DNA of 64,000 bases from Steinernema hermaphroditum (lineage: Eukaryota > Nematoda > Chromadorea > Rhabditida > Steinernematidae): contig CM059625.1 of the NCBI GenBank assembly GCA_030435675.1, positions 10,850,001 to 10,914,000 of the forward strand, given 5' to 3'. The notes under the pieces were generated by a model. It worked only from the letters and a program-made list of their open reading frames with translations. It had not been told where the DNA came from and ran no database searches. Positions 3,989 through 48,997 of this stretch are shown one piece after another (the stretch's first letter is position 1; each line of letters starts with the position of its first letter). The translations under genes were made by a program, and so were the position numbers.

Positions 3989-6900
3989 TCAAGCCGGAGC
4001 ACCTACAGGTAGCATATGTCGTCGATAAACCGGATCCACGGGCTCGTCGGGTTCGACGAGAACTTCATTTTTGGTTTTCTTTCGCGTTATAGAAAATCCT
4101 TTTTTCACCAGCTGAACAACCAACGGTGTTATCGGTTTTCGACAATGAACATACCTTTATCTTCAACAGTGGCGTTAAAAAGGTGACTAGAGGCTGCGCT
4201 AGCACCTCTCTCTTATGACTGACAATCCGTGGACCCAGCAGATTATTGAAGTGTGTTGTTAAATGTCTCCTTAAGAGTGTCTTGTGAGCAGGAATTTGAA
4301 GAACTTCGGCAAGGGATTCGGCAGTGAATGTTGGCTCGTTGACCTGAAAGCAACGGGACGCTTACAGCTTCGCTCTTTGTTTAGCTCACCATTAAAGCTC
4401 CGTGGATACCCGCGCAATTAAGATTTGGAGTGAATTCACCCAAGTCGATCGTCTTCAACCACTCGACCACACACTGTTGAGACCACTTCTCAACCTCATT
4501 AGCAATTGGGCACTTTTGAATGAGATCCTAAACAGCGACTTTGATTTAAAGCGCGCGAATTGTAACGTACTGCATCAAATTTACGTTCTAATCTATGAGG
4601 GAGGAAAGAAATATTGTGGAGGAATGCAATGCCTCTGGCAACTGCTGCATGCTGCAAGGCTGAAGTGATTTTCATCTGGAATTCACATTGACTGTTAGAT
4701 CGCACCCATTTAGCACTTACCTCTACAAGCTCGGCAGCAGTCAGTGTGACCAGAAGTGGTCCCTCGATCATGTTTTCGGTAAATACTTCTTTGTACTGCG
4801 GTAAACCGATTTCGTCCAACCATCGAACTACCTGAACTGGTCTTGTAAAACTTAATAAGATAGACGCCAAGGTTCAACCTGATAAGTGTCCATAATTTCG
4901 CTAACATCATTTCTGGGTTGTTCAATGCTGTGCAAAAAGAGCAGCAGTCTCTTCCTGTGGAAGGGATTTCTGATTAACAGGTCCTTTTCTAGTTCCAATT
5001 GAGACATGTTGAGCAGATGTCGACCGGACCTCACACATCGTTCAACTTCAGGGACGTAAGCAGTGAATCCTATTTCTGCCATCCATTCACACACTTGATC
5101 TGTAGTAAAATCGACGAACAGTTGTACTTGCGGACGTCTCGGCATAGCGCCAGAAACAGGACCAACTAATCGTGCGCTTGCCGATGATCTGAAGATTCAG
5201 CCGTTTTGTACTCATTCAATAAGTGGGTATACCGGATGTTTGAGTTTCTTCTGAATTCGCCTAGCCGATTCTCCTGCGAATTGCTCCGCGAGAACTTCCC
5301 GAGAAGATTGCGTATAGTGGATCTCGTACGACCTCTGCGGAATCTTTCCGTAGAGGCCCCAGTTGATTGCTGCCGTCCTCGTGTCAACTCATCATCACTT
5401 TCAGCTATAAAGGAGAGATCAGAAATGGAAGTGATGGATGCGAGTCGTGCAGCTAGTCAGTGCTAAAGACGAGGACTTGCTGTTGATGAGTTAAACCGCA
5501 AAAGCTGAGATTTCATGTTATGAACGCGACGGACGAAGGGTTAGGTCAGTTGTTATGTAGGGTAAGTAAATGTGGCAAAAGAGAAAATCCGAAAGGCATG
5601 CTCACGCGAATGATTATTTTGGTTGCAGTAGTCATCATCCATAAGGGACTGCATTGCACGCGGACCTAGGTTGGGCGCTGAGGTGCTTCGCTTGTTCGAG
5701 CGTCTCTGACGGTCACTACGAAATTTCTCCTGAATCCAGCGGTTTATGTGTACTTTGTACGATCGACCCGCCGATGGCGGCTTTCGCGAACTTCCGCTGA
5801 TAACACTCGGAGTTGCTGATGGGCGGTACTCACCACTTATGCCCGAACTGGCGATAGAAATCTTTTGAAGTGCATTACTTGACTCTCTCTGAAGACATAA
5901 CTCTTCTACTAATGCACGAAAACGTTTGCATACCTTAGTATTTACTGATCGCGGTAATGAGTTGCAGTTGTAAGAGCTGTTTATCTGCTGCTGCATTTGA
6001 AGTTCTCCACCAATTCGGCGTAATTCGTCCAGTTCGGCTGCAAGTTGTCTGGCTGCGGGCGATGACGGAGATCGATAGCTCGAGGGTCCTGGAGAGGCTG
6101 ACGAGCATGGGACAGTACCCATCATATAGTAGTTTGAGTGCGGCTTAATCAAATGCCTTGGCGTTCCTGATGTCGAGGACCAGGAAGAGTGTTGAGGGCT
6201 GGCCGCGGAAAGTGATGATGTGTAGGAGGAGGACGAAGGCATCTGTGACTAAAATAAGTAACAGTTCTGAAACCCGGAAACGTGAGCTTACCTGAGCAGG
6301 TGATCGTGTCGATAGATGCATTTGGGGAACATTACATAGACTGGTTGGATAGGACGAGGAGTGGGCAATGGGATCCAGTGTGTCTTCCTGCACAAAAGCA
6401 CGAAAGTTTGTGTCAAGAGAAATATTGCGTACTGTGAGTAATTTCCGTATTTGGGCATTAATGTCGAACGGCTGGTTTTTGTCGTAGGTGCCGTGCCGCG
6501 CCAGAGGAAACGAGGGAGAATTTCGCATCTCCATCGTCGACGAATATTTTTCCATTTCGCGCTCCTTTGCTTGTTCGTCTAGCGCGGACCGCAAAGTGTT
6601 GATCTCCATATTCTGAAACTCTTGGTAATACTGAGAGGCACTATAAATTAACCTTTTGTTCGTTGTCAGCAATTAGTTTCTGCACAGTCAACCTGAGTTT
6701 CTCCATTTCATCTTCTATAATTCAACTCATATGACTCAGTGCATAAACAACAACAACATACGTGGCTCGGATGTACCGTGGCATGATTGGACAGCGTGAG
6801 TGTTGAACTGTCCCTGAGTGTTCAGGTGAAGCCCTTGCGCGAGGACGTTGTGCATCGACTGAGTGAGCCTTTCCACTTCCGTCTACAATTATCTTGCTGT

Positions 6901-14238: not shown

Positions 14239-17203
14239 TCAAAGATCCCAGCTGAACAGATGGTGTTTGATGAGCATGTCTCGAACCCCCTCCTTAAGAG
14301 GCTGCTTCGAAATAGGACCGCTTCTTTTTGTGTTTCCATCGCGACTGCCGCCAAGCGAGAGCATAAATCTTCGCTGACCATTTGCGCATTTCTTCTTTGC
14401 TTTTTCTGTGCTGGAGATCTCATAGTCAACGTCCAGGCTGAATGAGAATTGAGTCAATAGGCGCAATTCGCACTTTATCTGCAAAAACAGGGTCAATTGA
14501 GGTCATTCGATGGCGTTCGCTCACCTGCATCCATGCGGGAGATCGAATGAATGAGTCTGAATGATAGTACTGTTTTCTGATGACATCCTGCATGGGATTC
14601 TTGCACATTAGTTCCAACCACAGGTGAAGACACTAAATCGAGTCAATCACGCTGTGAAAAGTTTTATTACCTGTTCATTAACGGCGTATACAACGAGAGA
14701 CCGCACTTTCACATCCATTAGTGCTTTCGACCCACTATGTGACTCGTTGATCTCTTGCACAGCTCGATACAATAATTCTTCGGGCGTTAAGATCTGAAAT
14801 AAGTTTCGAATGAGATGCAATGCAGAAGTGGCTGGTTGCCTTTCTGTCTTGATCAAGCTTGAATGTGTCACATAGGGTTAACCTTGAATTCACAGCACTG
14901 AAGTGGCACTGCACGCTGCTCTTCGCAATTTCTTCTGGAAAGAGCCTTGTCACATATTCGAGTCTTCAGTGGTCACTTCATACCGATAAACAACCAGGGA
15001 TGCAGTGCAAATGAGTACATGGAGTGCCGCAGTCCGTGCTCCAAAATCTGTTTGAACGTAATTGCCAATTGGCCTCTGATGAGCTCCGTTACTTCGCTAT
15101 TAATGGCTTCGTCTCCATAAACGCTGTACTTCTTCCCTCTGTCGTCCACGATCTGAAACCATGATCGACTAGAACTTTCGCCATTGTGGACAGGTACCTC
15201 AACAAATTTCGCAGGGAACCAGCCTCTCAAACCGTTCACTTCTCCAACCCAGCAATGCTCGTCTTTCTCATCGATCACCAGGATAATGTCGTTCTTTCTT
15301 AACATTTTGTGAACTTGCAAAGAACACTACGAATGATACCTGAATCCAAGCTCGTCTTCTTCCTGTCGTTGGAAATCAAGAAGAGCACGTGCACGTTTGA
15401 ATCCTGATTTCTGGGCATTCACGAAAACATGACGGTCGTTCTCTTCTTGATCCAGTGTATAATTAGCCTGAATATTATGCGGATGAGAATAAGTGATTTG
15501 TGTTTTCTTTACCTGAGTGACCACTGTTTTAGCTAAATTTTCGTCACAGCTAATAAAGTATTGACAAATTTGGTAAACTGCGTTTTTGAGATCAACAAGG
15601 TGTTCTGTTTGTCGTACGTTCTTCAGTTTCGGATCATTCTCCTCCGACTAGAAACATACGCAGTGCGACAGAAACACAACTAAATCTACCTCCTCCCTGC
15701 TAGGTAATATTTGTTGAATTATGCTTTTCGATCTGGTTAGTTTACGGCGATTTAAACGTTGTTTTGGTAGATTTGTCGGAATGTTCGTGTTGATTATTGC
15801 TCCACGATCAGCCATTAAAACTGCCTGAAGTGTTTTACGAGATTATGCCGGAATGGAATATATCCGCGTACTTGGTATTTTTTGCGGAGTTGTGATATTA
15901 GGTCTTCGGTAATGGAAAACTCGAATGTTGTCATCATTTCAACCAGGTGGTCAACTCTTTCTACTTGCGACGGAATCTGTGCGAGAACGTTGAAGAGCTC
16001 GGCTGAGGCACCATCAGCGGTCGATACATCAAGAACGTCTTGTTCATGCAGTTTGAGCATAGAGAGGATAACCTGAAACTTTTGCGTAGCGGCAAAAGAC
16101 ACTGAAACCGACCCGAAATATGGTCACGCCTCCGAACACAAACAACATGTCCCAAACTCGCAATAGCACTGGCATTGGAAACGCCGAGGCGAGAAGTGTT
16201 AGAAGCCAATTGACACTGATAAGCGACAGCTCGACGTCATTCTCGGTTAATTTCTGATCGATGTCGGGAATGTGAACGCGAAGAAGATGACGAGCAACCC
16301 GATCGTCAGCCTAAGACAACTTCATAAACATTCTCATCGAATCTGTCTTACCTGAAGCCCAAGCAGAGAATGGCTATAATAGTTTGACGGAAGAATGTCC
16401 TCTATGAGAGCGCACATTATCCAAAAGGTGTTCTCTTCACTGCAAACCAGAAGGAGCGATGCAACTATCACGCCCATTCCTTGACAGTAACCGAGATCAG
16501 GATACAGATAGGCCACAGCTTTCAGTACTCTTCTGAGTGCTTCGATTCCAGGAGATTGCTCATTTGAGAAACATATATTATTTGGAATGGTACGAAGAAG
16601 ATCCTTCTCTATTTGTATTCCGATACAAGGCTTGTCAGTGTCTGCTTGTGCTACAGCCTTTGAGTACTGAAAGACGGCATTTTGCCTCTTCTTCGTTGCT
16701 CCAATCAACCGAGGCCATAGGAAGGGACGCATGGAATGAGGGATGCCTTCTGCTTTAACCATATCATTTAGCTTGCAGTTCGTTATCTTGGATATGTCGA
16801 TTTTGTCCCATGTCAGCTCGCCTTCAATGTCATCATGCGCGAACTCTAAATGCGCAATCCACCGGAGGCGGTTTTGGGATGATTCCGACTGCGTCTTAGG
16901 CGTTTCGTCCGATGAGAATGGCTCCGAATTTTCGCATCGAAATCCATATTCATCAAAACTAAATCAGAGTGAAAACATGCCTGTTCGTCATATGTCATTC
17001 TACCGTCCAGGGATCCCATCGCGGTCGACAGGAACAATCTTGTGGTTAATCGAGGAGCAGCTTGCTCCATTCATAGAAAAGACACACGTGTGGATGGGGA
17101 GGTTTCCATTGGTGTCGCACAAATCCGGTGATGGTTCAAATACATCGTCTTCACCCACGGTGTCGGCAAACTTGGCGTCCTTCCCTTTCTTATATAAGGC
17201 CAT
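14239..17203 (-). CDS. SGSM3: SGSM3-type RabGAP: TBC + SH3 + RUN domains
   Basis: A small-G-protein signalling modulator of the SGSM3/RUTBC3 type; in C. elegans I recall the ortholog as tbc-18. ATG at 17203. Exon 2 begins FDEYGFR and includes RLRWIAHLEFAHDDIEGEL and LTWDKI, the family's N-terminal block. The TBC domain (about 15815-16770) has both catalytic fingers, arginine in IEKDLLRT and glutamine in LGYCQGMG, so it should be an active GAP. SH3 follows (RARALLDFQRQEEDELGFR, then KNDIILVIDEKDEHCWVGE and GLRGWFPAKFVEV), then the RUN domain (LTPEELLYRAVQEINESHSG, SFIRSPAWMQV, RCELRLLTQFSFSLDVDYE). The protein ends QPLKEGVRDMLIKHHLFSWD-Leu-stop at 14239, nearly the same terminus as the vertebrate protein. 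Domain order and end points therefore support a complete gene. A Ser/Arg-rich insert of about 20-25 residues lies just before the last block. Confidence 0.93.
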
Positions 17204-17685: not shown

Positions 17686-20600
17686 TTAGAAGGTGGCTTC
17701 GACCTGCTTCTTCCAGTCTCCGATGCTGGACTCAGATTTCTTCGTGGTCGAGCTGGAATGCTCATCGGATGTTTCGGAAGCGGCGACTTTTCGCACGACA
17801 ACAAAGTTGCGCTTCGGGGCAGGGGTCACCTCCGATTCGAAGACACTCTTGCGCTGACTAATCGGAACCTTTGCAGCTGCGTTATGTCGGTACTAGAATG
17901 AAATTATTTCTTGCCATTCTGACTGAAACATACGCTGATGGTGCTGCTAACTGAAGAGGGCTCAGTCTTTGGCACGGGCGGTTTGTACTCATATTTCTGC
18001 TCGACGACCTTCTTCACCTCAGTGTTGGTGAGAGTAGCAGAGGAAGCGACCGAAGTACGTCGCGAGGCCGACTGTGAAACCAGTGTGGATCCATTGCTGA
18101 CAACGGACGACACAGATGAACGCTTCGAGGCTTGTCCGACAGTAGAGGGCGCACGATGCGAATGCTTCGACGGCTGAGAAACGCTGGAGAACACAGAATC
18201 GCGCTTTTCTGACAAGACAACGCGTTCCTCCTCAACTTGCTTCGAGGGCTCCTCGAACAGGGTTCCAATATTGGTAACATGTGAAACGCGACGCGAATAA
18301 TGACGCGGCTTCAACTCCTGTCCTCCCCAGATGCGAACCTGGTTACGCACGCTCTTGACAACGCGGACGGACTGGAACTTTTCCGGATTGAACTTTGCCG
18401 AACGAGGAGTGGTAACGCCGCGCTCTGGTGGAGTGTATGCGGGCTCTGAAAAGTATGTCGTGCGAAATATAAATGCAGACTGTTGAGTACTCTGTGAGGA
18501 AGGAGCCTTAGCAGAACTCTGTTGAGTATTGACGGAGGATCGACGGGATGATGCAGCACTGGGAAGACTTTCCTAAAGAACACAGAACGTAGACTCCAAG
18601 CGTGTATTACTGTACGCACCTGCTCAATTTTATGAATTGACGGGGACTGGTTGTGGTGCAGGAAATCATTCACCTGGGAATCATCATCGGAGAGCCCGAG
18701 CACTTCCTGAAGGATTTCGCGAGCACGGCCTTCGTACACGCTTGTCTGGAGAGAGCTTCGGCGGCTGTCGTTCACGAAGGTCTCTTCGTCCTAAATATTT
18801 GTGACGTCACACTAGCAAATGTACGGAAGATGTTCATTTCAGAACTGGCTCCAGAGTTTTGCAAATGTTGTGTTCTACTCACATGAACGACATTGCCGGA
18901 TTCGAAGCGGTTCAAGAGCGAACGCACACCAGGAGCCTCACTGACTTCGCGCTGAGCATCTTCGTTTAGTGGAATATCCTAAATTTCAGCTTCAGCTGCT
19001 GCACGAACACTAACTCTGAGCTATTACCTCCGATCGGGTCGAGATAGTGCGAGCGGCACGAATTAAACCAACGGGCTCTGACTCATGATGATAATGATGC
19101 TCTTCCTCGTGGTGGTGGTGGTGGTGGTGGTACTCAAAGGGCTCTGCCTCAGTGTTGCGGTCGTCTTCATGGTGAGGCTCCTCGTAGTGCAATTGTTCTT
19201 CGACCTTTTCAGTGACATCTTTGACGTGATGAACAAAAGTGCGTGGGTTAACGACTGGATGGTCTTTGACGGATTCTGCCTTTTCTTCATGTTCGACGTA
19301 TTCTGGGTGCTCGTAGTCTTCTTCGGTTTCAACGTTCTCATGTACGTTCTTAAATGTTCCAAATCAAACAGTGAGGGGAACGTGGAAAGCTAAGCAGGGC
19401 AATGCAGGTGCTCTAGCTGGTGCGCTTTTGGTTTAGCTATTGGAGTTGTGGCAGTGCCTTGTGGCTATTGCTCTTTAGCGAAATCGCTTGACGTGCACGT
19501 AAGCAGTAAAACTACCGGATTACGTTTTCATTATCCAAAGGATTGCGCTGTCGCAGCGCCGCATGAAGCGCGGTCTGGAAACTGTCGTGATGCTTCTTGG
19601 AGTGCGTGAACTTGCTAACTAGATTAGAGTCAAAGTGGTATTGCACATGGCGTACAGCAACCACTCGTTCGTCTTCCCCATCATCTCCTTCCTCCAAACA
19701 AGAGTCAGTCTGCAACATGCGGCAAAACGATAACCCTTATACGGTAGTGTGTCCGTCTTCCAAGCACCTCCAAATGCAGCTCCAAAAACCCTGATAACTT
19801 ACATCGTGCCAGCAAGTAACCTTGTACCCATCAACATCGGGAGCGACCTGATTCTGCTGAGCCTTCAATTCTTGAATGACACGGTCATGCTCCTCGGACT
19901 TTGCTGGGACCACTTCTTCGCTCACTGAGTGGTGATCATGAACATTGTAGCTCTGCAGCAGGATACTCATAAATGATTAGATTATGCCGACACACTTACC
20001 ATGTGACTTTCACCTTCATCGTCGTCGTCAGTGGAAACAACCGACTGATGTTCAACTTCCAGCATGAAACCGTCAGCGGGCCGACTGAAGTTCTCATCGA
20101 TGGCCTAAAAATGTGGGCATATCGCTGCATCCGCAGTCGGAATTGCCAGGTTATGTACCTCAATGTCGTGCTCGTGGCAAACGATCTCAGGTTCATGGTC
20201 CGGTTCAGGAACATCTGGCTCCCCAACATTCTCGCGATGGAGTTCCTCATCGATATATCCGGGTAGGGGTTCGGGCTCTTCGTAACAGTGCTCTTCTGAG
20301 ACATGTTCCTCGTATCGAGTAATGTGAACAATGTGCTCGTGAACGTTGTGTTCTACGTGTTCGTACTCCTCCTTAAGTTAAACGGCATATTTTTGTAAAA
20401 GAGAAGTTGATATTACATGATGATGATGATGCTCGTGTTCGGGGTACACCGAAGGTTCACTCACACTGGTACAGTTTGAGAGGGGCGACTGACTACGGTG
20501 AATCTCATCGTGGTGGTGGTGCTCCTCGTGAATGTGCTCGTGCTCCTTTTCGTGATGACAGTGTTCCTCCTCGGCCACCTCTTCAATAGATTCAGTAAGG

Positions 20601-20810
20601 TGATGATTATGGTGCTCCTCAAGTTTGGTGTGCTCATGGTGGTGATGGTGGACCTCTTCTTCCACATCCTGTTCTTCTTTCTTGTTAGGGTAGAGCACAG
20701 GGCATAAATGAATTGGCGCAGAGAAAACCATTTTCACAAGTTCTAAAATCTCGATTGAAAAGGGCACTATGTAAACTTATACCATCCGAATTGGGTTCCA
20801 AGGTGGCCAT
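17686..20810 (-). CDS. Histidine/glutamate-rich and Ser-rich protein, function unknown
   Basis: Starts at ATG 20810 (MATLEPNSD), followed by a GTATAAG donor. The second exon (about 20420-20690) is built of His/Glu runs such as EEEVHHHHHEHTKLEEHHNH and YPEHEHHHHHV. The middle exons (19500-20330) are acidic, for example EEPEPLPGYIDEELHRENVG. Another His cluster lies at 19010-19140. Later exons (17900-18780) are Ser/Thr/Arg-rich with AREILQEVLGLSDDDSQV, EAPGVRSLLNRFESGNV and FNPEKFQSVRVVKSVRNQVR. The C-terminus is SSIGDWKKQVEATF-stop. No signal peptide, membrane segment or catalytic domain is seen. The His clusters could bind Zn, Ni or Cu ions, but this is inference from composition. The two conserved-looking blocks (SLLNRFE and KSVRNQVR) may be short linear motifs of a cytoskeletal or muscle protein. 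Family not recognised; the splice structure of the acidic part is approximate. Confidence 0.7.
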
Positions 20811-22483
20811 TTTAGTTGAGGTGAAGAAGAGTCCGAAATGAGCTGAAATGAAAAAAGGAATGCTTGTTTAACCGTCTCACTGGTACAAGGGAATTGTGAA
20901 TCAAACACGTGTCTCTATAAACACCAGTGTGAATCAGTCGTTGCACTAAGAAAAATAGTCAAATTACTGATAGCAAATATTAAATAAAGTCGGGCGGCTT
21001 TTGTGTTCTCACGCAGTTGGATGACTGGAACAAAATGTGGCTTTGAAATAAAGTGGCGTTATCGAAAGCTAGGTGGACGTTGAAGAGCCAATGACTAATT
21101 ATCGGTCCCTGTTCGTCATCGGTTTCAAACCACTCCGGCCGCGGAAGGCTGCTCGAGAGCTGCTTCGTCTCATAGCTGATAAGAGACCACGACGCTGCGT
21201 CAAGCTTCATTGCAGCGGTGCGGCTAGTTTGCAAAAAAATAATCGTACACAGAATGCACATCCGTTCTTCTACGTTAAAAACTGTGACACCGTTGAGAAT
21301 ACTTTCTATCGTCAATGTTTTTGCATCATTGATCACCTCTTTTTAAATCGCTACAGTATCTATTTTGTTTGCATATGGATCAGTGGAAAGATGTTCGCGA
21401 AGCCACGCTTGAACTTCAACAACAAATAAAGTTTAATGTCAAACAAATCTGGAAATCTTGGAGAAGAATGAACTAGAAGCTAAAGCGTTCTACATGTCGC
21501 AGAGCTTGTGAAGAAGAACGGAGATGTGAATAGTGGTGAGCAGCAGCAAAGTGCTGAAGTGCTGTAGAAGAAGAAATGATAAGCGAACAGTGATAATTAT
21601 TATCAGGGTGCGCTTGGGAACCAATCTGATGATGTAAGGCCTTAGGAAGTGTCCAATAAATTATTCCAACTGTTGTCGCCGCTCACAACACACAACTCAC
21701 TGTTGTTGCATTGTAGACTTCATTGCAGAAAAAGGATTACCACGCCTTTCGTAAGGATACTGAAGAGCGATGCATTTATCGGCCATACTGTTGATTGTGC
21801 GTAGTGTATCCGACCACAGTGTTTCATCTTTCAAGAACTTCAACATTTTAGCCGACTAAGCCTTTCAATTCAAAACTTTCCTTCACAATAAGGCATTTTG
21901 GCTGGAATAACAAAGTAGCTGCACAGTGTCATAGTTACGGTGGCCATTTTCACCTTCTAACATTTACCATGTTGTCACTCACTCTGGTATTGATGAAAAA
22001 GTCGTGCCTGTGAGAAATTCCGAACCTCTTGAAATTAAACAACTCATTACAGAACACACCATGCAGGAACTAAGATTTGTCAAATGCATCAGGTGTCTAG
22101 GTGTCTTGAAAGTACACGCAAGTTATCGACTTTAGCTGATTCATCAGTTCGATTCGATTCGAACCTTCGAATATCGAATATTCGATTCGATTCGATATTC
22201 GAGGATCTGCGAATATCGAATATTCGATTCGATTCGATATTCGAAGATTTCCGAATATTCGACAACCCTACACGCAAGCGAGCGAAATCTTTTCAGTATG
22301 CAACGTACGGTTCTGAAGCTTACAAGCGAAGATTACTCGCTGATAGCACTGAGTGGAAGTCAACATGTTTGTATTTTCACGCGACTTATCAGTAGACTCT
22401 TTTTGGTTGTCGCTTTCTCCTGGCTCATTGACGGCACAATCTCTCGTCCTGTCGGTTCATTATCCTGTATTCTCTTTTAGACT
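20811..22483. other. Divergent intergenic region
   Basis: About 1.7 kb between two divergently transcribed genes. It should hold both promoters. It contains a 118-codon minus-strand frame at 20980-21336 overlapped by a plus-strand frame of the same size; neither has recognisable content, so neither is called. An AT-rich palindromic repeat near 22142-22271 is listed separately. Confidence 0.5.
22142..22271. repeat. TTCGAATA-type palindromic repeat, possible hAT terminal remnant
   Basis: A stretch built from GATTCGATTCG, GAATATCGAATATTCG and similar self-complementary words. One unit of about 42 bases is repeated nearly exactly (22169-22210 and 22211-22252), followed by a partial third unit ending in CGAATATTCGACAACCCTA. 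Read in reverse, this end begins TAGGGTTGTCGAATATTCG, which resembles the terminal sequence of some hAT-superfamily elements. No matching partner end or transposase was found nearby, so this is a remnant or a local satellite. Confidence 0.5.
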
Positions 22484-24028
22484 ATGAAATTCAAAGTGCT
22501 ATTGGTGTTGGTTATTCTCGCTCTACTGGCTGTAAGCTTCAGCGAAGCTGGCAAGAATCGTCGCAAGCACAAGCACAGGCACAACTCAGATGACAGCCAG
22601 GAGGACTCGGAGCTCCAGGAGAAACATGGTACCATCTGGTGGATGCGTATGTAGTTCAAGTGTTATGTGTTTAGGATCTGCGAGAGAAGAACAAGATCGA
22701 AAAGAGAAGACTGAAAGAGGTAATGTACCTTGTCTGTAATACTGTCAGCTAAAAACGTTTAGAACGAGAACGAGAGCGAGAACATAAGTGGAATGATGAA
22801 GAGGACGATGATGAAGACGACGATAAGGACGAGAAGAAGACAACAAATTCTACCGTCTCTTTGGTCTCCTCTCGTCATCGCCGCACCCATACAGCTGAGA
22901 AAGTAGAACATGTGTGTTGTCTGTTTCAATTGACACCACTACCTTGAAAAATTTAGAGACCGGAAGAAGCGGAGCAGACACGCGCGCGACGTCACCATCA
23001 TCGTCGCTTTCAGGTTTAGGAAGAAGTCACATAAATAGCTTCTCTTTCGCTAGTTTAGGTCCATCGTCATCGCAGGGAGCACAAGCGTGCAGAAGTAAGA
23101 CGCGGCTATTGTAACAAATCCTTGTTGAAACGAAAAATTTCAGCGCCTTGCAGACCGCTATCATCGCCACAGACGTCAAGAAACCTTGAACAAAGCGACC
23201 GAAGTACGGATCGTGTCTTGCCTTCGTTGTGACGTAACTGTTGTAGCTCAATGACGGAACCCGCCATGAACTGCCGTCGGCAAAGCATCAGCCATCTGGC
23301 AACGGAACGGTAAAGAACAAGATACATTTCATCGGTATCCGTACTTTGTTTAGATGCGCCGTCTTCGTCGAACTCAGCATCACCACGAAAATCGTGGACA
23401 TCATCACGAAGTTCCTTGAAAGAACGTCCAGCGGAGGTGACAGATCTTGATTTAGGAAGGGGTCCGCCGCAAGCCCGCTCAAGGCATTCTCAACATGAGA
23501 CGTCACGGAAAAGTTCATCCCGACGGAACGCGCGTGCGTCGCTCACTCAATCCCCACATGCGTCTGGGATATCCCCTTCGTCATTTGAATCCCGAAGTTA
23601 GTGGATGCTGTTAAGTAAAGGGCTAGAGTTCCTTCAGTATCGTCAGAGCAACAGCGAGCACCCTGACAGTACAAACTCGTTAAGCCCTCACATGCGTCTT
23701 GGGTATCCCCTGCGTCATTTGAACCCAGAAGTTAGTTTCTTTCGGAAGACAGGCAACTAGTTGTATTCATAGAACGCTGTCCATGGAGGCCAGGAACACG
23801 CGCACGACAACTCTCTGAGCCCTCATATGCGTCTCGGTTATCCACTTCGCCATTTGAACACTGACGTTAGTTGATAACCAACTTAGACATCAAGCAACAA
23901 AGAGTTTTTCAGTACCAACAGCAGAATGGGCAAGAAGGTCACCGTGATTTTAAGCCGGTGAGCTCTGTTCCATGGCATTCATTGCTTAACGGTATTAAAT
24001 TTAGGCCGTCTTCGACCGTATGTATTAA
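22484..24028 (+). CDS. Secreted Arg/His-rich precursor with repeated 17-residue cassette
   Basis: ATG at 22484 follows a TCTCTTTTAG acceptor by three bases, a spliced-leader site. The N-terminus MKFKVLLVLVILALLAVSFS is a clear signal peptide. About a dozen small exons then join in frame, many in phase 0, across introns of roughly 40-80 bases. The early mature region is acidic (DEEDDDEDDDKDEKK) and the middle is Arg/His-rich (RARRHHHRRFQ, RLADRYHRHRRQETLN, RTQHHHENRGHHHE). The last large exons each end in one cassette: LNPHMRLGYPLRHLNPE, LSPHMRLGYPLRHLNPE and LSPHMRLGYPLRHLNTD, each followed by a GTTAGT donor. The final exons give YQQQNGQEGHRDFKP and AVFDRMY-stop. An RVRR site precedes the first cassette. 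No known family is recognised. It could be a peptide precursor, an antimicrobial or metal-binding secreted protein, or a matrix protein. Confidence 0.7.
23546..23596 (+). repeat. Peptide cassette, copy 1
   Basis: Encodes LNPHMRLGYPLRHLNPE, directly preceded by RVRRS, a candidate furin-type cleavage site. It ends at a GTTAGT splice donor. Copies 2 and 3 share 16 and 14 of the 17 residues. Confidence 0.85.
23680..23730 (+). repeat. Peptide cassette, copy 2
   Basis: Encodes LSPHMRLGYPLRHLNPE. Synonymous differences from copy 1 (for example GGG for GGA and CTG for CTT) show the peptide is kept while the DNA drifts. It again ends at GTTAGT. The exon begins YRQSNSEHPDSTNS, unlike the lead-in of copy 1. 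Confidence 0.85.
23815..23865 (+). repeat. Peptide cassette, copy 3
   Basis: Encodes LSPHMRLGYPLRHLNTD, with the last two residues changed. It is preceded in its exon by NAVHGGQEHAHDNS and followed by a GTTAGT donor. Confidence 0.85.
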
Positions 24029-34202: not shown

Positions 34203-35372
34203 CTAAAAGGTGGCTTTCATTTGAAGGCTTGCGATTGAGCACACAAAATTGGTGTTATATGCATTTCGTGGACAAACTGGCCATGAGGTACTTTCAGACG
34301 TAACAGTTCTGACAGGATTGCAAACAGCTCGCACGAATTGATGAGGTGGTATCTGTTGCTTTCTTGTTCGACGTGACCGTTTCGGCCCCACAACGACGGG
34401 CTCGTGCATATCGCTCTCGTGTGCCTCTTCCCAGCATGCAGTGCAATAGTAACTGAGACACTTCGAAGAGCCACAAAACTTGGCTTCGTCACTTCCACAC
34501 TTGTCACATTTGGCGTCGTCAACAACGAAGGGCTTGATTTCCATCTAAATAAACTTCCGTCAAAAACATTTCAGGCTTGTGTTGTGCATGCATTCTTCTG
34601 ATGTTCGGAGTTGTCGAAACGCAAAAAACGTTTCCCGACCGCAGCCATATAGCTATGTAAGAAGGCAAAGCGCACTCGCGCCGACCCCCGAGGATAAAGC
34701 AAAGACGAGTCGACGTCGATGGTTACTTGAAGCACACAGCCAAAGTTCGTTTGCAGCAGTGCCGCTAATTGGGCTACAACGAAAATGTGTTGTGCGAAGG
34801 AAAAGATCGACATACCCGCTGTGGTGGGCCGAGGAACTCCGCCGACGAAAACTGTCAGTCGGTAGTTTGGAGGGGGCGCGGGTGCATAAATGTAGAAGCA
34901 GTCAGATAACATCCATGGCCTTACTTGCACCTGAATGACCAACTTTACGCATCACTCAATTTTGTATGAAAATGGTACCTGTTTGTTTCTGACAGACAAA
35001 CTCGACAGAGTTATTATAAATTTACCACCAACATGAGCGCACTGTGAAAGTAGACTGACAACGGACGACGTCTTCTCAAATATCACGAATGCGTACCCTA
35101 GGCTTTCATCGAGAATAGTTGATGAGGATACAATATACCTTGAGGGGGAAATTGGTAGCAGCTGTCATTTTTGTGAGGCCAGTCGATCAAATGCTTTCCA
35201 AAAACAGAAAAACAGTGAGTAAGTTGCCCTTTAAACAGTTGCTTTATGACAAGTTATCAGTTATTCATACGTTCATCAATGTCCGGTGGAAGACCGCCGA
35301 GGAAGACCTTTTTCGAAAACGTGGGACTGTGTGGAACGGTTGTAATTCGGAAGGTTCCAGCATGCATCTGCA
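34203..35372 (-). CDS. CPEB-type cytoplasmic polyadenylation element-binding protein, C-terminal core
   Basis: CPEB proteins bind U-rich 3' UTR elements through two RRMs and a C-terminal zinc-binding ZZ domain, controlling poly(A) length and translation, often in the germ line. RRM1 is encoded by exons ending near 35290 (FSKKVFLGGLPPDIDE), 35100-35200 (LIDWPHKNDSCYQFPPQG) and 35040-35110 (LGYAFVIFEKTSSVVSLL). The linker and RRM2 follow (VQVRPWMLSDCFYIYAPAPP, RLTVFVGGVPRPTTA, an intron, then LLQTNFGCVLQVTIDVD and YPRGSARVRFAF). The ZZ domain has CDKCGSDEAKFCGSSKC and YYCTACWEEAHE with spaced Cys/His ligands. TAG stop at 34203. The N-terminal exons upstream of 35372 are not resolved. Nematodes have several CPEB paralogs, and I cannot tell which one this is. 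Confidence 0.88.
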
Positions 35373-42564: not shown

Positions 42565-43655
42565 AGGCCTGTTTATACTCTGCGCGACTGCGCGACAGCA
42601 AAACGTGTCGCACAGCGCGGCGACCGGTCGCACAGCTGCGCGACACGTTTTGCTGTCGCGTAGGCGTTTATACTCTGCGCGACAGCTTCGATCGCAGATA
42701 TGACAGATATCTTGCTGTTTCATGGTAAGATCTTGTGGAACTATCACTGCAATCATGATTATTGGTGATATTCTCTGCAAGGCACTTCGCCTTAAAAAGT
42801 GTTTGGGTGTTCGTGGCGGGACCAAGGTGGATCGCAGATTAACCTAACCTCACCAAAAACCGGCAAAGTTGGCATAAATCACCCTTCCATGGTGATTTCC
42901 AGCTTAACCGAACGTGCCAACTTTCCAAATTATAACCTGCTGTGAGCAGGTCGAACCTACGAAATTTACTACCAAAGTAGCAAAGGCTTAAAATCTTCCC
43001 GAAATCACGTTCCCGGGGTTTCCCAAATTGGTACGAACCTACGAAATTTACTAACAAATTAGCCATGCGCTAAAATCTTCCCAAAATCACGTTCCCGAGG
43101 TTTCCCAAATTGGTACGAACATGCGACATTTACCTAATTGTGGCCCGTTCCTAGCATCGGCTTACTGTAGGTCAGAGTGATTGTCGAAAACAAAAGTATG
43201 CCCGCCGCTCTGCGACAAGAAGAACATGTACTCCCAAAAACAGAGGGATTCGTAGTCAATGAACGTGGACGAATCTAGCAAAACCCAAGAAACCTACACG
43301 CGAGTCATCAACCTGCACAAAAAATACGTTGAAACAAAAAGATCCGATGAATTTTGCACAAAAAACTGACTATGCAGCTGCGCGACACACACCCTGCAGC
43401 TCAGCGAGCTGAGCGGCAGCAAAATCGGTCGTCGCGCTGCGCGACAGGTCGCACAGTCGCGCAGAGTATAAACGCACTCACTGTGTCGCGTAGCTGCGCG
43501 ACTGCGCGACAGGCAACAATCGGTCGCCGCGCTGCGCGACACGTCGCGCTGTCGCGCAGAGTATAAACAGCTACGCGACTGCGCGACTGTCGCGCAGCGC
43601 GGCGACCGATTTCACAATGCTGCGCGACACTGTCGCGCAGAGTATAAACAGGCCT
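42565..43655. mobile_element. Inverted-repeat element with TGCGCGAC subterminal arrays, copy A
   Basis: Ends are AGGCCTGTTTATACTCTGCG at the left and its reverse complement at the right. Just inside both ends are dense clusters of TGCGCGAC and its complement GTCGCGCA, many copies in both orientations, like binding sites for a transposase. The interior includes an 82-bp tandem repeat and a minus-strand open frame (VPPRTPKHFLRRSALQRIS) without a recognised domain. From about 42635 to the right end it is identical by eye to copy B 7,440 bases downstream. The left 70 bases differ. TA lies one base outside each end, so the target site is not certain. No transposase motif is seen; probably non-autonomous. 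Confidence 0.8.
42952..43140 (+). repeat. 82-bp tandem repeat inside copy A
   Basis: Units start at 42952, 43034 and 43116, each opening CGAAC(CT)ACGAAATTTACT or a close variant and ending in the TTTCCCAAATTGGTA phrase. The first two units are complete and diverged; the third is partial. The same array is in copy B at 50392-50580. Confidence 0.8.
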
Positions 43656-43771: not shown

Positions 43772-46700
43772 ATGCAAATGAGTCGATTGCCAGGTGAGTT
43801 CTGATTTTTGCAGAATCGTGTCGCCTGCAGTGGAACGCATTTTTTGTTTTCAATTTCTTGCCGCGTTTGTTTTGCGTGATGTCCTTCCGGTCAAGGAATC
43901 AAGTGAGTCAGTCAAAAGTAAGTCACCTGCTTTCAGACGACCAATGGGGCCTGTTAAAAGCTTGATTAGCGTATTGACCACGCACTTTCTTTCCGTTGGG
44001 GATATTCCCGACGATGTAGTTGACAAAGCGTGAGACTATCATCTGTTTCCATTTAAATAACCACTTATTTATAGCTTTGAAAGCTTATTTAGCGATTATT
44101 CCGAGCTAGGTGACGCCGCTGAGTCAACGATGATCACAAATCTCGAATTTAACGATCAACTGGAATCATGTAATCTGCTTTCCTGTATATTTGTCATAAT
44201 GACTTGCCTTGTAGTGACAAACGCCTTAGAGACATTCCTGTTGGCCTCCACGGAACCTATCTTCGACCGTATGAGTGAGGAAGGTGTTCCGGCGAAAAAA
44301 CTTGTTACGCTGGCATGGATGGCTATGGAAGAATCACTGAAGAATCCGGCGGATATAGCCGGTTTACGTAAAGGTGTACAGGCAGCGAGAATGTACACAT
44401 TGCTCTGCTGTCTGCCCGGTGCCGGCGCTTTTGAAATTTATTCGAAATTTCTTTATCTGGTATGGAAATGTTCAGTATTCTTGAGCATAAATTTTTAGAG
44501 AGTCACCGAGCTGGCCCGCCATATCTACCGTTTGGTTGTGTTCAAGCAACCAATCGGCTCGATCGCCACACCACAAACCACCGGTCGCAAAAAGAAAATC
44601 AGTTCAGCAAAGAAGAAGAGTTTATCGCGTTAGTCTCTATTTTTAAACAGCTTCGTGTACAAACCATCGTTGTTTAGGAAGCGAAATATCGCCAAAAGAA
44701 CAGGAAGCATGTCGTCAATTGCTCCGTCACTTTCTCGATGGTGTGTTCTCGTTCGTAGGGCACGTCAGCCTCTTTGACAAAGATGTAATTGTCGCCACTG
44801 CCTTGCTTCTTCGCGACATCATCTTATTCGACCTGCCAACTGGGACAAAAACTGGTCCCGTTGATTCGTTTCCGGACTTCTTGGCGCTTCCGACTCTCGG
44901 CGACAAGTGCTTTGGAATACTTCACCGTCTCATGGACGATCGTCACCCAGAAGGACGCAAAGAAGTTATGGGCAGGGTGCTTCTCCCACAAATTATGTGC
45001 TACGGAACTGCAGATGAAGTTCTGCCATCGACGTCGATCATTTCCAGCCAGATGATCCGTCATCGAGATGCCATCATGGCTTTTCTAACGGCTCGTGCTG
45101 AGGTGATTCCAGCCCTCCCGGAAATAGATGTAAATTTGTGGTTTTATCTAGATGGATTCGCCCAAAGAAAGTCGTATGATATATCAACTCGTGCAGAACA
45201 CCTTCAGATGTCCCGACCGCAGCGACTACAAAGCAAGAGTGTCCGAGGGTGTCATTAGTTTGCTGCGTTTAATTCCGACACCGTTCCACTATGTAAGAAA
45301 AAAGAGATGCAGTCCGGTGAATAAGTCATACGTTTTAGCAGTTCGTTCAGTTCATGGACATCGTCTACAGTCAGCCTATGGGGTCGATGCGCAGTTTCCT
45401 AGTGGAGGTTTTACCGCAGTTCATCAATAGCTTCGGTTAGTTCCAATGGAGTGGCTCTCCCATCCCATGATGTTTCCTTTTAGATTTGTCGGGTGCCGAT
45501 CCTGGACCGATTGCCAATACGAATGACACCACAGAAGAGGACGAATCGGAAGCGGAAAATAGTGACCATCCAGAGGACAGTGACGATGAAGAGGAAGAAA
45601 TAAATCGGTCCTCTCAAAGAAAGCGGCAGCCGAATAAGCGACAGGAGTCACCCCTTCCCCGCATGGACGCGGTCCGAGGCCCAGTGGATATCCTTCTCGA
45701 AGCTGTGTATGACAAGTCATCGTCCATTCGAGCCAGGGCGGTGCTGCACCTCGGTAACCTCCTGAGAGATGCGCAGAAGCTCGAGCTCATTCAGAAGATC
45801 TGCGCCGACAACTCTGACCTTGAAGAGCACCGCAGGAAAGAAGCGAGAACAGGCCAGAAATATCCATCGCCGTTGCTCTTAATATTGCTGCACAAATGCG
45901 ATGACGAGAAGGTTGCTGTGCGCAAGTCGGCTTTGGTCGCTCTCGGACACCTGTTTCCTTCCATCGAAGATCCGGACCTCATAAAGTACATGTTTAATGA
46001 AATGGCTGTATGAAAATTAATTTTGCGTTCTTGATTTTGACCTCATTTTTTAGGATTCGACGAGAGATATGGCCATTTCTGTCCGAAAGCAGGCTGCAGA
46101 GACGCTTAGTGAAGTCTACAAGCTGAATCCAGGCTCTGAAGTTATCCGCACGACTTGGCTGGAATCCATGATGCCCTTGCTGATTGACCGGGAGCAGAGT
46201 GTCCAGCAAATGGCTTCCAAGATCGTCATGGTACATAGGGATCTTCCATTTACGGGGTGTCATCGGACATGTTTTCAGGACACCATATTCGCGGAATTGA
46301 ACTCAACGTCACCAAACGAATTCGTGTGGATGGTCTTGTCCGACATTGAAGCAGACTTCAATTTGCGACGCCTTCTCTATCGTGCCATGAGAGCGTTATT
46401 GGACCAGGGTTTGCTTCCAAAGTCGCTGGTCAAATCGATGTTGTGTTTTGCCGAAGACCCATCCAAAAGCCAACCAGTTTGGTTGGTACTCTCGTTGCTG
46501 GCCAAGATTTTCCCGATTGAAGCAAAGGTGGCGTTTGAGTATTGGCTTACTCTTGACCAAGAAATGCACAAGACTCTGGTGCCAACTTACGTCATTAACG
46601 TGCTTGTCGAGTCTTGTACCAAACTTAAGCAGCACGACCGAGACACATTGATGCAAGATCTGAAGGCTCGTATTGTCCGTTTCGGTATTAAAGCGCATAA

Positions 46701-48997
46701 TATCCCTGCTGTGTTCTATCTGTACGCGAAGCTCAATGACGCCATCGGAGAAGAAGCCAAGGGACACAAGAACTTTCTCCAGTTTTGCAAGCGCCTCGTC
46801 ACGATGGTCTCACACGCCGTCTGCGAAGCGGTGTACGGTAGGCCGCTCAGTGAATTGCCGTTCGGTGGAGAAGTGTTATCGAGCCATGGAGTCTCGCAGC
46901 CGACTGCCCCAGCATCAGCGCCAGCGCCAACGATCCTCCCAGAAGACCTGAACGAAGAGACGGTTGTTTCCATGCTGCAGATCGTTGGCGAATGTGTGCA
47001 GTACGAGCCGAAATCATGCACTGATAAGCTGGCTAAGGTGTTTAAGTACATCTTCGCCTCTGAGTATGCCTTCTCGGGTAAGAGTTATGCACGTATACAA
47101 TAGTCTTAAACACATTATTTAGAAAATGAAGAGCCCGTGAGCAATGTCCGCGCAAACATGGTGATGTCTCCAGTGCGTCCGAGTCAGCCGCAGTCTCAGG
47201 CTACGCAGGTCTTCCTTCGCGAACATCGACAGTTAGGCACTTTGACGACAAGACGAGTTCGAGCGGCGTGCGCAGTGGCCTTGTGCCGTATCTGCCTTCA
47301 GGTAACGACACTAGAATGACACTAAAACTAATGTAGCTAGTTTTTTTTTCAGAATGAAAAGCTGGCTAAGGAGGTCATTCCTGTGTTCGCGAGAGAACTT
47401 CGCAACAACCGCGATCATATTGTCCGCAACAACTTGATCGTTGGCATCGCTGATCTGTGCGTCCGCTACACACTCATGGTGGATCGTTACAGCACTGTGA
47501 TGGCATTGTGCCTCACAGATGCGTCTGTTTTCGTTCGCCAGCAGACGATCACTCTGCTGACGATCCTGATCAAAGAGCAGTACCTTAAATGCGAAGGACA
47601 AGTAAGATGCGATGAGTCGATGAAAATCGATGTTTTTTAGATTCTTTATAAGCTGATTGGTGCCCTTATCGATGACAACAAGAGTATTCGGGACTACCTT
47701 AACTTCTGCCTCGTCGAAGTCCTTCTCGTGCAGTTCCCGGAAATGTTCTTCCACCACTTCGTGCAGTGCGTTTTCTACTTCAATGGGATCGACAACCGTC
47801 ACATGACATCTGAAGAGAGTGAGTCGATCTACTATCTAACTTCATATATCATCGTTGCTTAGGGGAGCTGCACGAGTTGGAGAAGAAGAAGGACAAGGCC
47901 TACGTCCACGAGCACATGAAGTCGAATCTCCAAGGGCAAGAGAACTTCGTTCGCAGAATGCGTCTCTACAGATTCATGGTACTATCTTATCTTCCTCATG
48001 TGAAATAATCATCTTTTACAGCTGGGAGCGATGAACGACATCCAGAGATTCGCGGTTTGGGCGCGACTCATCATCGAGGTGGCCCAACCGATCAGCGATG
48101 GCACCATGGACTATAAGAAGAAGGCCTTCGAAAGTGTGCTCGTCGACAGCTTGAACGTAAGCACCTTACTATCACCGCTGTCTTATGTTTGCGTTCTTTA
48201 TAGGTCATGTGCTGCGCAGAATTCCGAATGCACAGTGTGATTCAAAAGAAACAGAAAGACGATGATGAGGAAGCAGCAGATGACGCAGCGCTGCCGACCC
48301 AGAATGAAGTGAGATTCAGTGCGGAGAGGGCGCGCTGCCTGCGAGTGGGAATTGGAGAGATGATCATTCCCGGCATGCTGAGCCTGCGCGGATTCTTGAC
48401 TGAAAAGCGCTCGCCGATCTTGAAACTAGTTATGAAGGCCTTCATGTAAGACTGATGTGGTTCATTGCATTCGTTCGAACATCATCATTCAGGGTGCTCG
48501 TTGGTGACTACGAAGAGCAAGTGGACACATTTTTTGCCAATGACCGGCAGGTGAAGGCTGAACTCTTGTTTGACATCCGCTGCGCGAAGGAGAACGAACA
48601 GAAGCAGCAGCAAGAACAGGAGATGACTCAAGCCGTCGAAAATATGCATGTGACACGTGCCACGTCCGTCAATCGGAATCGCGAAGTTCCTTCAACGCCT
48701 CTTGCGTCCAACCTCCGAGCCATGTCAGTAGATCTATCGGCGAGAAGAGCACGAAAACGGAAATCCTCTATGTTTTCCAGGAGGGAAATGGAGAAGTCGA
48801 CGATATACGGTAAGACTTAAGATCGTGGAAACGTCAACTTAAGCGCTCTATTTTTAGCCGAGGACGATGAGCAGAATCCACTGGCTGAGTACACCAATAG
48901 AACCCAGCGTGATGGCGATCCCGATGCCGATATTCCCTCCCGCGCTTCCATACTCAAGTCACCTGCCTCTTTTGCTGGGCTTGCGTCTTATTTGTGA
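43772..48997 (+). CDS. hcp-6: Condensin II subunit NCAPD3 / HCP-6 type
   Basis: A HEAT-repeat, non-SMC subunit of condensin II, needed for mitotic chromosome compaction and centromere organisation. About a dozen exons join in frame. N-terminal exons include RRPMGPVKSLISVLTTHFL and FLDGVFSFVGHVSLFDKDVI. The central HEAT region contains SSIRARAVLHLGNLLRDA, KVAVRKSALVALGHLFPS and ISVRKQAAETLSEVYKL. The family's D3 block follows: FARELRNNRDHIVRNNLIVG, DLCVRYTLMVDRYSTVMALC, FVRQQTITLLTILIKEQYLK, FPEMFFHHFVQCVFYFNGID and RRMRLYRFMLGAMND. The C-terminal part (IPGMLSLRGFLTEKRSPILK) leads into a charged tail ending ASILKSPASFAGLASYL-stop. Its length, roughly 1,150 residues, is shorter than vertebrate NCAPD3, mostly at the tail. 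The start is uncertain: ATG at 43772 requires a very short 37-base intron. The gene is bracketed by element copies A and B. Confidence 0.88.

What the first reader, a model, noticed from the sequence alone, without database searches (positions are those of the whole stretch)
22484..24028. Secreted basic precursor with three exon-encoded copies of one 17-residue peptide
Three consecutive exons each end in L(N/S)PHMRLGYPLRHLN(P/T)(E/D), directly before a GTTAGT donor. Codons differ silently between copies while the peptide is kept, which suggests selection on the peptide. The gene has a signal peptide, a spliced-leader site, an acidic segment, Arg/His-rich segments and an RVRR site before the first cassette. 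I know no family with this layout. It could release a new peptide group (neuropeptide, antimicrobial or metal-binding) or form a repetitive matrix protein.
Basis: partly seen in the sequence, partly recalled or inferred. Interest (0 to 1): 0.75.

Follow-up and report, generated by a model that had tools for sequence, protein, structure and literature searches.

The report
Secreted worm protein with repeated module
A roundworm gene with a counterpart in the insect-killing worm Steinernema carpocapsae appears to encode a secreted, cut-to-size protein whose tail carries the same 18-residue module three times, kept by selection, while the annotated counterpart carries it once; it is an undescribed but not revolutionary gene.

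Summary
A 13-exon gene is read at 22484-24028. Exons 9-11 each end in SL(N/S)PHMRLGYPLRHLN(P/T)(E/D) before a GTTAGT donor. The copies differ at 11-14 of 54 bases but 1-3 of 18 residues; silent sites are saturated (dN 0.05-0.08; random placement matched in 0, 1 and 0 of 5000 trials). The peptide is constrained.

One clear homologue was found: S. carpocapsae L596_004053, 45% identical, annotated with ONE copy. Its 5 R-X-K/R-R sites and 2 sequons all align with sites of the window protein, which has 6 and 2: good support for a convertase-processed secreted proprotein. Only copy 1 follows such a site. The 102-residue tail after it has no adjacent K/R pair, so release of three separate peptides is not supported. 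Likely product: one tail with three modules 31 residues apart, or fewer if the symmetric 93-nt exons are skipped (inferred).

Strongylid proteins share the layout, but homology is unproven. No Pfam match passed its cut-off; no solved structure matched the last 131 residues. Function is inferred: most likely a multivalent secreted or matrix peptide.

The parts
22470..22480 (+). Splice acceptor (TTCTCTTTTAG) ending 3 nt before the ATG; probable spliced-leader acceptor
   Evidence: Sequence; trans-splicing inferred, not shown
22484..22628 (+). Exon 1: signal-like peptide MKFKVLLVLVILALLAVSFSEAG and basic start
   Evidence: aligned with P0001
22675..22719 (+). Exon 2
22763..22911 (+). Exon 3: acidic stretch, sequon NST, RHRR site, start of THTAEKVEH
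22957..23013 (+). Exon 4: QTRARR site
23059..23094 (+). Exon 5: H/R-rich; holds the one RHRR site without an aligned partner in P0001
23144..23203 (+). Exon 6: RHRR site, QETLNKATE
23247..23309 (+). Exon 7: LNDGTRHELPSAKHQPSGNGT, with a sequon just before MRRLRR; absent from my first 12-exon chain
   Evidence: Matches P0001 residues after KATE
23354..23410 (+). Exon 8: MRRLRR site, H-rich
23456..23596 (+). Exon 9: RVRR site then module copy 1
23531..23542 (+). RVRR convertase-type site, aligned with RSKR of P0001
23543..23596 (+). Module copy 1: SLNPHMRLGYPLRHLNPE
23638..23730 (+). Exon 10 (93 nt, phase 0-0)
23677..23730 (+). Module copy 2: SLSPHMRLGYPLRHLNPE, no dibasic site before it
23773..23865 (+). 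Exon 11 (93 nt, phase 0-0)
23812..23865 (+). Module copy 3: SLSPHMRLGYPLRHLNTD, no dibasic site before it
23913..23957 (+). Exon 12: YQQQNGQEGHRDFKP, aligned with YQQSNQVKNGHYHHDLKP of P0001
24005..24028 (+). Exon 13: AVFDRMY and stop
   Evidence: not confirmed in P0001, whose model seems to run into the intron here

Best explanation
An apparently single-copy gene with a homologue in Steinernema carpocapsae encodes a secreted, N-glycosylated, largely disordered proprotein. A furin-type convertase cuts it at five conserved R-X-K/R-R sites, removing the acidic and R/H-rich segments. The last cut, at RVRR, frees a tail of about 102 residues in which the constrained module SL(N/S)PHMRLGYPLRHLN recurs three times, 31 residues apart, in one chain. 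The module is probably a short binding segment for one partner (matrix component, glycan or receptor), and repeating it raises avidity. The two extra copies sit in symmetric 93-nt exons, so splicing could set the module number at one to three. Shown by sequence: repeat, constraint, conserved sites, one copy in the annotated relative; the exon chain is read from splice signals and the relative. Inferred: secretion, cleavage, glycosylation, variable splicing, multivalent binding.
For: Constraint: dN 0.05-0.08 against saturated dS between copies; 0, 1, 0 of 5000 randomisations match, while the sequence just before the module is at chance level between exons 10 and 11. Five of the 6 R-X-K/R-R sites of the window protein and 5 of 5 of P0001 are at the same alignment columns (0 of 2000 shuffles at each of two window sizes), as are 2 of 2 sequons. 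The 102-residue tail has no adjacent K/R pair, and modules start at tail residues 1, 32 and 63. The pre-module part of exon 10 aligns with that of exon 9 (HPDST---NSLSP against HPDGTRVRRSLNP; 3 of 3000 shuffles, one of eight such tests), a hint that a duplicated unit lost its site while the module was kept. Ten of 11 internal exons are multiples of three and 10 of 12 introns are phase 0. Charge-hydropathy puts the chain after the signal peptide in the disordered range.
Against: No transcript, peptide, localisation or phenotype data. Under the looser convertase consensus (R/K)Xn(R/K), n = 0, 2, 4 or 6, quoted in PMC10538796 (passage), the tail has two candidate pairs: RHLNPEYR, between copies 1 and 2, and RDFK near the end; a cut at the first would free copy 1 from copies 2 and 3. 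No K/R at all lies between copies 2 and 3. The exon 9/exon 10 upstream match is short and one of eight tests; the like test for exon 11 gave nothing (1346 of 3000). A single-copy relative shows that repetition is not essential to the gene. Single Arg residues inside the module could be cut. The structure prediction failed, so disorder rests on composition only.
Confidence: 0.5

Rival explanations
1. A neuropeptide-like precursor: the convertase releases the peptide after RVRR, possibly trimmed further at single Arg residues, and it signals through a receptor.
For: Secreted-type precursor with conserved dibasic sites. A loose convertase pair lies between copies 1 and 2. S. carpocapsae infective juveniles yielded 19 neuropeptide-like genes with no nematode homologue already annotated as such (nlp-100 to nlp-118; PMC9881375, section 21 read); whether L596_004053 is among them could not be checked.
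Against: Copies 2 and 3 are not bounded by dibasic sites; no amidation signal by eye; the freed tail would be about 102 residues.
Confidence: 0.22
2. A cationic antimicrobial or host-directed secreted peptide precursor, the acidic segment acting as a neutralising pro-part.
For: Acidic segment (residues 49-95, net -9) followed by strongly basic H/R-rich segments (96-165 and 166-240, net +11 each); insect-killing life style of the homologue's species (general knowledge).
Against: The constrained, repeated module is in the neutral tail (net 0), not in the cationic part; no cysteine; no Pfam match above cut-off.
Confidence: 0.13
3. On ancestry (compatible with any function above): a member of a wider nematode family that includes Nippostrongylus Q1695_001402 and its Haemonchus and Trichostrongylus relatives, in which 31-codon cassettes were amplified in different parts of the protein.
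For: Profile hits to four N. brasiliensis models, E 1.1e-4, 3.6e-3, 0.011 and 0.18; same order of signal, basic, ERERER, acidic, sequon, RR segments; KATELNDG against KAQEINDG; strongylid models differ by net 62, 31, 30 and 31 residues. 0 of 500 shuffles reach the window score against the strongylid profile at each of three window sizes.
Against: Mostly low-complexity and signal-peptide score; other pairs fail: P0006 against the Steinernema profile is reached by 148, 58 and 5 of 500 shuffles; alignments outside the acidic part are reached by 7, 191, 300, 187, 753 and 92 of 1000. Strongylid proteins P0006 and P0005 find other places, weakly, not this locus, in the genome.
Confidence: 0.4
4. The repeat is a recent or neutral exon duplication without functional meaning.
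For: Single copy in the annotated S. carpocapsae protein.
Against: Silent sites are saturated while residues are kept.
Confidence: 0.05

Closest known systems
Steinernema carpocapsae L596_004053 (hypothetical protein, P0001)
   Same: Homologue whose only places in this genome are here: 45% identity, covering 75% of the query, five convertase-type sites, two sequons, the module SLNPHMRLGYAMRHLNPE after RSKR
   Different: One module copy instead of three; its last 25 or so residues look like intron read-through (my reading)
Strongylid Q1695_001402-like proteins (N. brasiliensis, T. colubriformis, H. contortus; two records named 'Alstrom syndrome protein 1')
   Same: Layout, ERERER and acidic stretch, sequon, several R-X-R-R sites, 31-residue pieces that differ between models
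   Different: In N. brasiliensis the repeated piece is another segment (RRTKELVKAQEINDGEQKPLEKRPTQTHQ); homology not proven
Nematode neuropeptide-like precursors (nlp)
   Same: Secreted type, basic cleavage sites
   Different: Repeated module not bounded by dibasic sites, no amidation signal
Schistosome micro-exon genes (MEG)
   Same: Secreted product from many symmetric exons; MEG-26 members show a tandem repeated motif, taken as internal duplication (PMC5825161, passages)
   Different: MEG exons are 6-36 bp; here internal exons are 36-149 nt; no sequence relation claimed; different phylum
Cuticle collagens with an R-x-x-R site
   Same: Furin-type site in secreted nematode proteins (PMC10538796, abstract and passages)
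   Different: No Gly-X-Y repeats seen

Membership tests
S. carpocapsae L596_004053 orthologue group | Collinear similarity over the whole protein and mutual best match | tested here: met
   with P0001, 5 of 5 places found in this genome lie at this locus. The reverse check in the S. carpocapsae genome was not possible; P0001 was the only Steinernema protein returned
S. carpocapsae L596_004053 orthologue group | Conserved cleavage sites and sequons | tested here: met
   5 of 5 R-X-K/R-R sites of P0001 and 2 of 2 sequons aligned
Neuropeptide-like precursor (nlp) | Signal peptide | tested here: inconclusive
   Hydrophobic N-terminus seen in sequence; no signal-peptide predictor was available
Neuropeptide-like precursor (nlp) | Mature peptide between two dibasic sites, or between signal peptide and a dibasic site | tested here: not met
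   For the module: copy 1 has a site before it, none after; copies 2 and 3 have none. Other segments of the protein do lie between sites
Neuropeptide-like precursor (nlp) | Peptide detected by mass spectrometry | not testable with these tools
Cysteine-rich antimicrobial peptides (nemapore, CS-alpha-beta) | Cysteine pattern | tested here: not met
   0 cysteines in the 335-residue model
Strongylid Q1695_001402-like family | Sequence homology beyond composition | tested here: inconclusive
   mixed results
Strongylid Q1695_001402-like family | Same intron positions | not testable with these tools
Micro-exon genes | About 80% of coding region in symmetric exons of 6-36 bp | tested here: not met
   10 of 11 internal exons are multiples of three but only one of the 11 is 36 nt or shorter
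Cuticle collagen | Gly-X-Y repeats | tested here: not met
   None seen by eye in the translation; no Pfam match above cut-off

The most novel reading that the evidence does not exclude
An undescribed secreted proprotein family spanning clade IV and V nematodes, in which phase-0 cassette exons of 31 codons were amplified independently in different segments and are spliced in variable number, so that each worm sets how many copies of a short binding module one secreted chain carries: a nematode counterpart of schistosome micro-exon genes.
Probability: 0.2. Interest if true: 0.6.

Novelty: new variant of a known kind. Interest (0 to 1): 0.36.

Why it matters
The module is under strong constraint yet matched no named family here, and the annotated relative carries one copy where this genome carries three. 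That makes it a clean natural case for asking whether copy number of a short secreted module is tuned by exon duplication and splicing. If the strongylid link holds, parasites of livestock carry relatives.

Tried and rejected
Three separately released peptides: rejected as the leading reading, since the tail has no adjacent K/R pair; a loose pair between copies 1 and 2 keeps a partial version open. Gene conversion or recent duplication as the cause of identity: rejected, silent sites are saturated. Paralogues in the genome: none convincing; of 9 places found with the 335-residue model at E up to 1, 7 lie at this locus and the other two (E 0.03 and 0.68) match only query residues 37-155, the charged part. 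A separate strongylid-type gene in this genome: none found; others (P0006; P0005) gave one weak place each (E 0.52 and 0.13). Of the first place I read bases 1-2000 of 3246, which hold long simple-repeat runs; I did not locate the match in it. Known names in print: no paper of the held library holds any of nine peptide strings (three, six) or the locus tag L596_004053. Contaminated prokaryote or viral contigs holding relatives of P0001: none. Profile homology with strongylids: kept as unproven; all shuffle results are in the full report. Other relatives may have been missed: the profile searches scored only the 7989 and 7975 candidates sharing most words, and a protein far longer or shorter is not a candidate.

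Papers that gave nothing used here: listings beyond those cited; passages of PMC12629237 and PMC10506718. The paper on the S. hermaphroditum genome was not held, so the species was not identified.

Row selection: the strongylid profile used P0005, P0006 and P0007, and the reverse test P0003, P0005, P0006 and P0007, of seven strongylid proteins found; one search used P0005-P0007. P0001 was cut to its first 275 residues, dropping a probable intron read-through of 25 residues; the whole of it has the same 5 sites and 2 sequons. Protein searches and the Pfam scan used the 314-residue 12-exon model, before exon 7 was found. The search of solved structures used the last 131 residues of that model only.

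Full report
What is there. The window is C5:10850001-10914000 of a 90.6-Mb genome in 60 contigs. The closest protein found is from Steinernema carpocapsae, so I take the species to be a Steinernema or close kin; the species was not established. A gene of 13 exons is read from 22484 to 24028 on the + strand. My first, 12-exon chain gives 314 residues; the 13-exon chain, with exon 7 at 23247-23309, gives 335. Exon 7 was recognised because the S. carpocapsae protein continues KATE-LNDGKRHDVVASKEVSASSTNST-MRRLRR where the 12-exon chain jumps from KATE to MRRLRR, and the gap encodes LNDGTRHELPSAKHQPSGNGT between an acceptor TTGTAG and a donor GTAAAG. Introns are 41-49 nt. Ten of 12 introns are phase 0 and 10 of 11 internal exons are multiples of three.

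The repeat. Exons 9, 10 and 11 end in SLNPHMRLGYPLRHLNPE, SLSPHMRLGYPLRHLNPE and SLSPHMRLGYPLRHLNTD, each followed by GTTAGT. Over 54 nt the pairs 1-2, 1-3 and 2-3 differ at 11, 14 and 12 bases but at 1, 3 and 2 residues. Nei-Gojobori counts are 9, 11 and 10 silent differences on about 13 silent sites (dS 2.05 for 1-2, beyond the correction for the others) and 2, 3 and 2 replacement differences on about 41 sites (dN 0.050, 0.077, 0.050). Placing the same number of changes at random without stops matched the observed residue conservation in 0, 1 and 0 of 5000 trials. The duplications are therefore old and the peptide is constrained. Outside the module little likeness is left: the 39 nt before it in exons 10 and 11 align no better than shuffles (668 of 2000 reach the score); the introns after the copies score above shuffles with their first six bases (GTTAGT) included (46, 3 and 0 of 2000 for pairs 9-10, 10-11, 9-11) and less so without them (626, 98 and 20 of 2000). 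The module was found nowhere else in the genome (3 of 3 matches here), and the whole gene seems single-copy: of 9 places found with the whole protein, 7 are at this locus, the other two have E 0.03 and 0.68. These genome searches score only their best candidates.

The relative. A search of 5.77 billion proteins with residues 175-314 of the 12-exon model returned one protein at E up to 10, among 1431 candidates: L596_004053 of S. carpocapsae, E 1.9e-5. Pairwise it is 45% identical (123 of 272 alignment columns), and its only places in this genome are here (5 of 5). It has one module, RSKR-SLNPHMRLGYAMRHLNPE, joined directly to YQQSNQVKNGHYHHDLKP, which aligns with exon 12 (18 of 3000 shuffles reach the score). 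Its final residues look like intron read-through after DLKP (my reading). Whether its genome holds further module exons could not be checked.

Processing sites. R-X-K/R-R sites number 6 in the window protein and 5 in P0001, and 5 fall on the same alignment columns; 0 of 2000 local shuffles reached this at window sizes 8 and 15. Both sequons coincide (NST with NAT, NGT with NST); the second directly precedes MRRLRR in both. This is what a convertase-processed, glycosylated proprotein would show; neither cleavage nor glycosylation was observed. In C. [quoted passage not shown]

Why not three peptides. Only copy 1 follows a dibasic site. After RVRR the remaining 102 residues contain no adjacent K/R pair, and the modules start at tail residues 1, 32 and 63, so a convertase acting at such sites would leave one chain with three modules at a 31-residue period. 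Against this: by the looser consensus (R/K)Xn(R/K), n = 0, 2, 4 or 6, quoted in PMC10538796, the tail has two candidate pairs, RHLNPEYR between copies 1 and 2 and RDFK near the end. A cut at the first would free copy 1 alone; no K/R lies between copies 2 and 3, so these two would stay together. The stretch before copy 2 aligns with that before copy 1 (HPDST---NSLSP against HPDGTRVRRSLNP; 3 of 3000 shuffles), which hints that the duplicated unit once had the site and lost it. This was one of eight comparisons: exon 11 against exon 9 gave 1346 of 3000, exon 10 against exon 12 204, exon 11 against exon 12 2296, exons 10 and 11 against the S. carpocapsae tail 536 and 363, exon 10 against exon 11 706, exon 12 against the S. 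carpocapsae tail 18. I take it as a hint. The module has no Gly-Lys/Arg amidation signal (by eye) and the protein has no cysteine.

Wider relatives. A profile of the two Steinernema proteins retrieved four Nippostrongylus brasiliensis models (three named Q1695_001402; E 1.1e-4, 3.6e-3, 0.011 and 0.18), and a second round added one Trichostrongylus colubriformis and two Haemonchus contortus proteins (E-values of that round are partly circular because Nippostrongylus proteins were in the profile). They share signal-like start, basic patch, ERERER run, acidic patch, a sequon, and several R-X-R-R sites. Successive Nippostrongylus models differ by net 62, 31 and 30 residues, the H. contortus pair by 31, as would be expected of whole-codon cassette exons; that they are splice forms is inferred. 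Controls are mixed. Against the strongylid profile, the window protein (33.4 bits) was matched by 0, 0 and 0 of 500 local shuffles (window 8, 15, 30; signal peptide left intact), P0001 (19.6 bits) by 9, 5 and 2. Against the Steinernema profile, P0005 was matched by 32, 1 and 0, P0003 by 25, 3 and 0, P0006 by 148, 58 and 5, P0007 by 5, 0 and 0 of 500. Removing the first 24 residues cuts every score: to 16.2 (window), 2.0 (P0001), 11.4 (P0005), 6.1 (P0003), -19.2 (P0006) and -13.4 bits (P0007). Local alignments outside the acidic part were matched by 7, 191 and 300 (window protein with P0005, P0006, P0007) and 187, 753 and 92 (P0001 with the same) of 1000 windowed shuffles. Homology is possible, not shown.

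Family searches. Pfam: five matches to the 12-exon model, best E 0.013, all below cut-off; P0001 none, and P0005, P0006 and P0007 only below cut-off. Solved structures: none at E up to 10 for the last 131 residues of the 12-exon model. Composition places the chain after the signal peptide in the disordered range of the charge-hydropathy plot.

Mechanism. I favour a multivalent secreted or matrix peptide (0.5). A neuropeptide-like role is next (0.22). S. carpocapsae infective juveniles gave mass-spectrometric support for 19 neuropeptide-like genes with no nematode homologue already annotated as such (PMC9881375, section 21 read and other passages seen); whether this gene is one of them is the quickest decisive check. 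The antimicrobial reading suits the cationic middle but not the neutral tail that carries the constrained module. The wider-family rival is about ancestry and can be true together with any of these, so its figure is not part of the same sum.

Verdict. The claim of a polyprotein releasing several copies is not supported. It is a gene without a name in the sources searched here and of restricted known distribution; the interest is moderate.

Noticed in passing
22168-22258: Tandem 42-bp CGAATATCGAATATTCGATTCG unit just upstream of the gene; a dispersed repeat (145 matches listed genome-wide, a lower bound). Elsewhere copies often come as pairs about 1.2-1.5 kb apart (such as C1:6583397 and 6584722), as if they bounded a small mobile element; no second copy at such a distance was listed here.
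   Followed up: partly
42606-42905 and 50046-50345; 42952-43133 and 50392-50573: Duplicated segment, 97% identical over 300 nt plus matching 82-bp tandem arrays, 7440 nt apart, flanking a gene at about 44.0-48.8 kb (looks condensin subunit-G-like from memory; the one ORF scanned, 46054-47103, had no Pfam match).
   Followed up: partly
18311-20776, minus strand: Neighbouring ORFs, some very rich in His-Glu runs (HHHHHHHEEEHHYHHE in 19010-19363); no Pfam match above cut-off in the two ORFs scanned, 18311-18790 and 20378-20776. No relation to the finding shown.
   Followed up: partly
4852-5196, 14973-15326, 16334-16963, 34203-34544, 60487-60828: Neighbouring ORFs with Pfam matches above cut-off: SAM, SH3, RabGAP-TBC, CEBP_ZZ, PAN (5 of 10 ORFs scanned).
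   Followed up: yes
L012 1-2000: Runs of TTCGGGTTCGGTTTCGGGTACCCGAAAA type simple repeat beside what looks like exons of a multi-exon gene.
   Followed up: no
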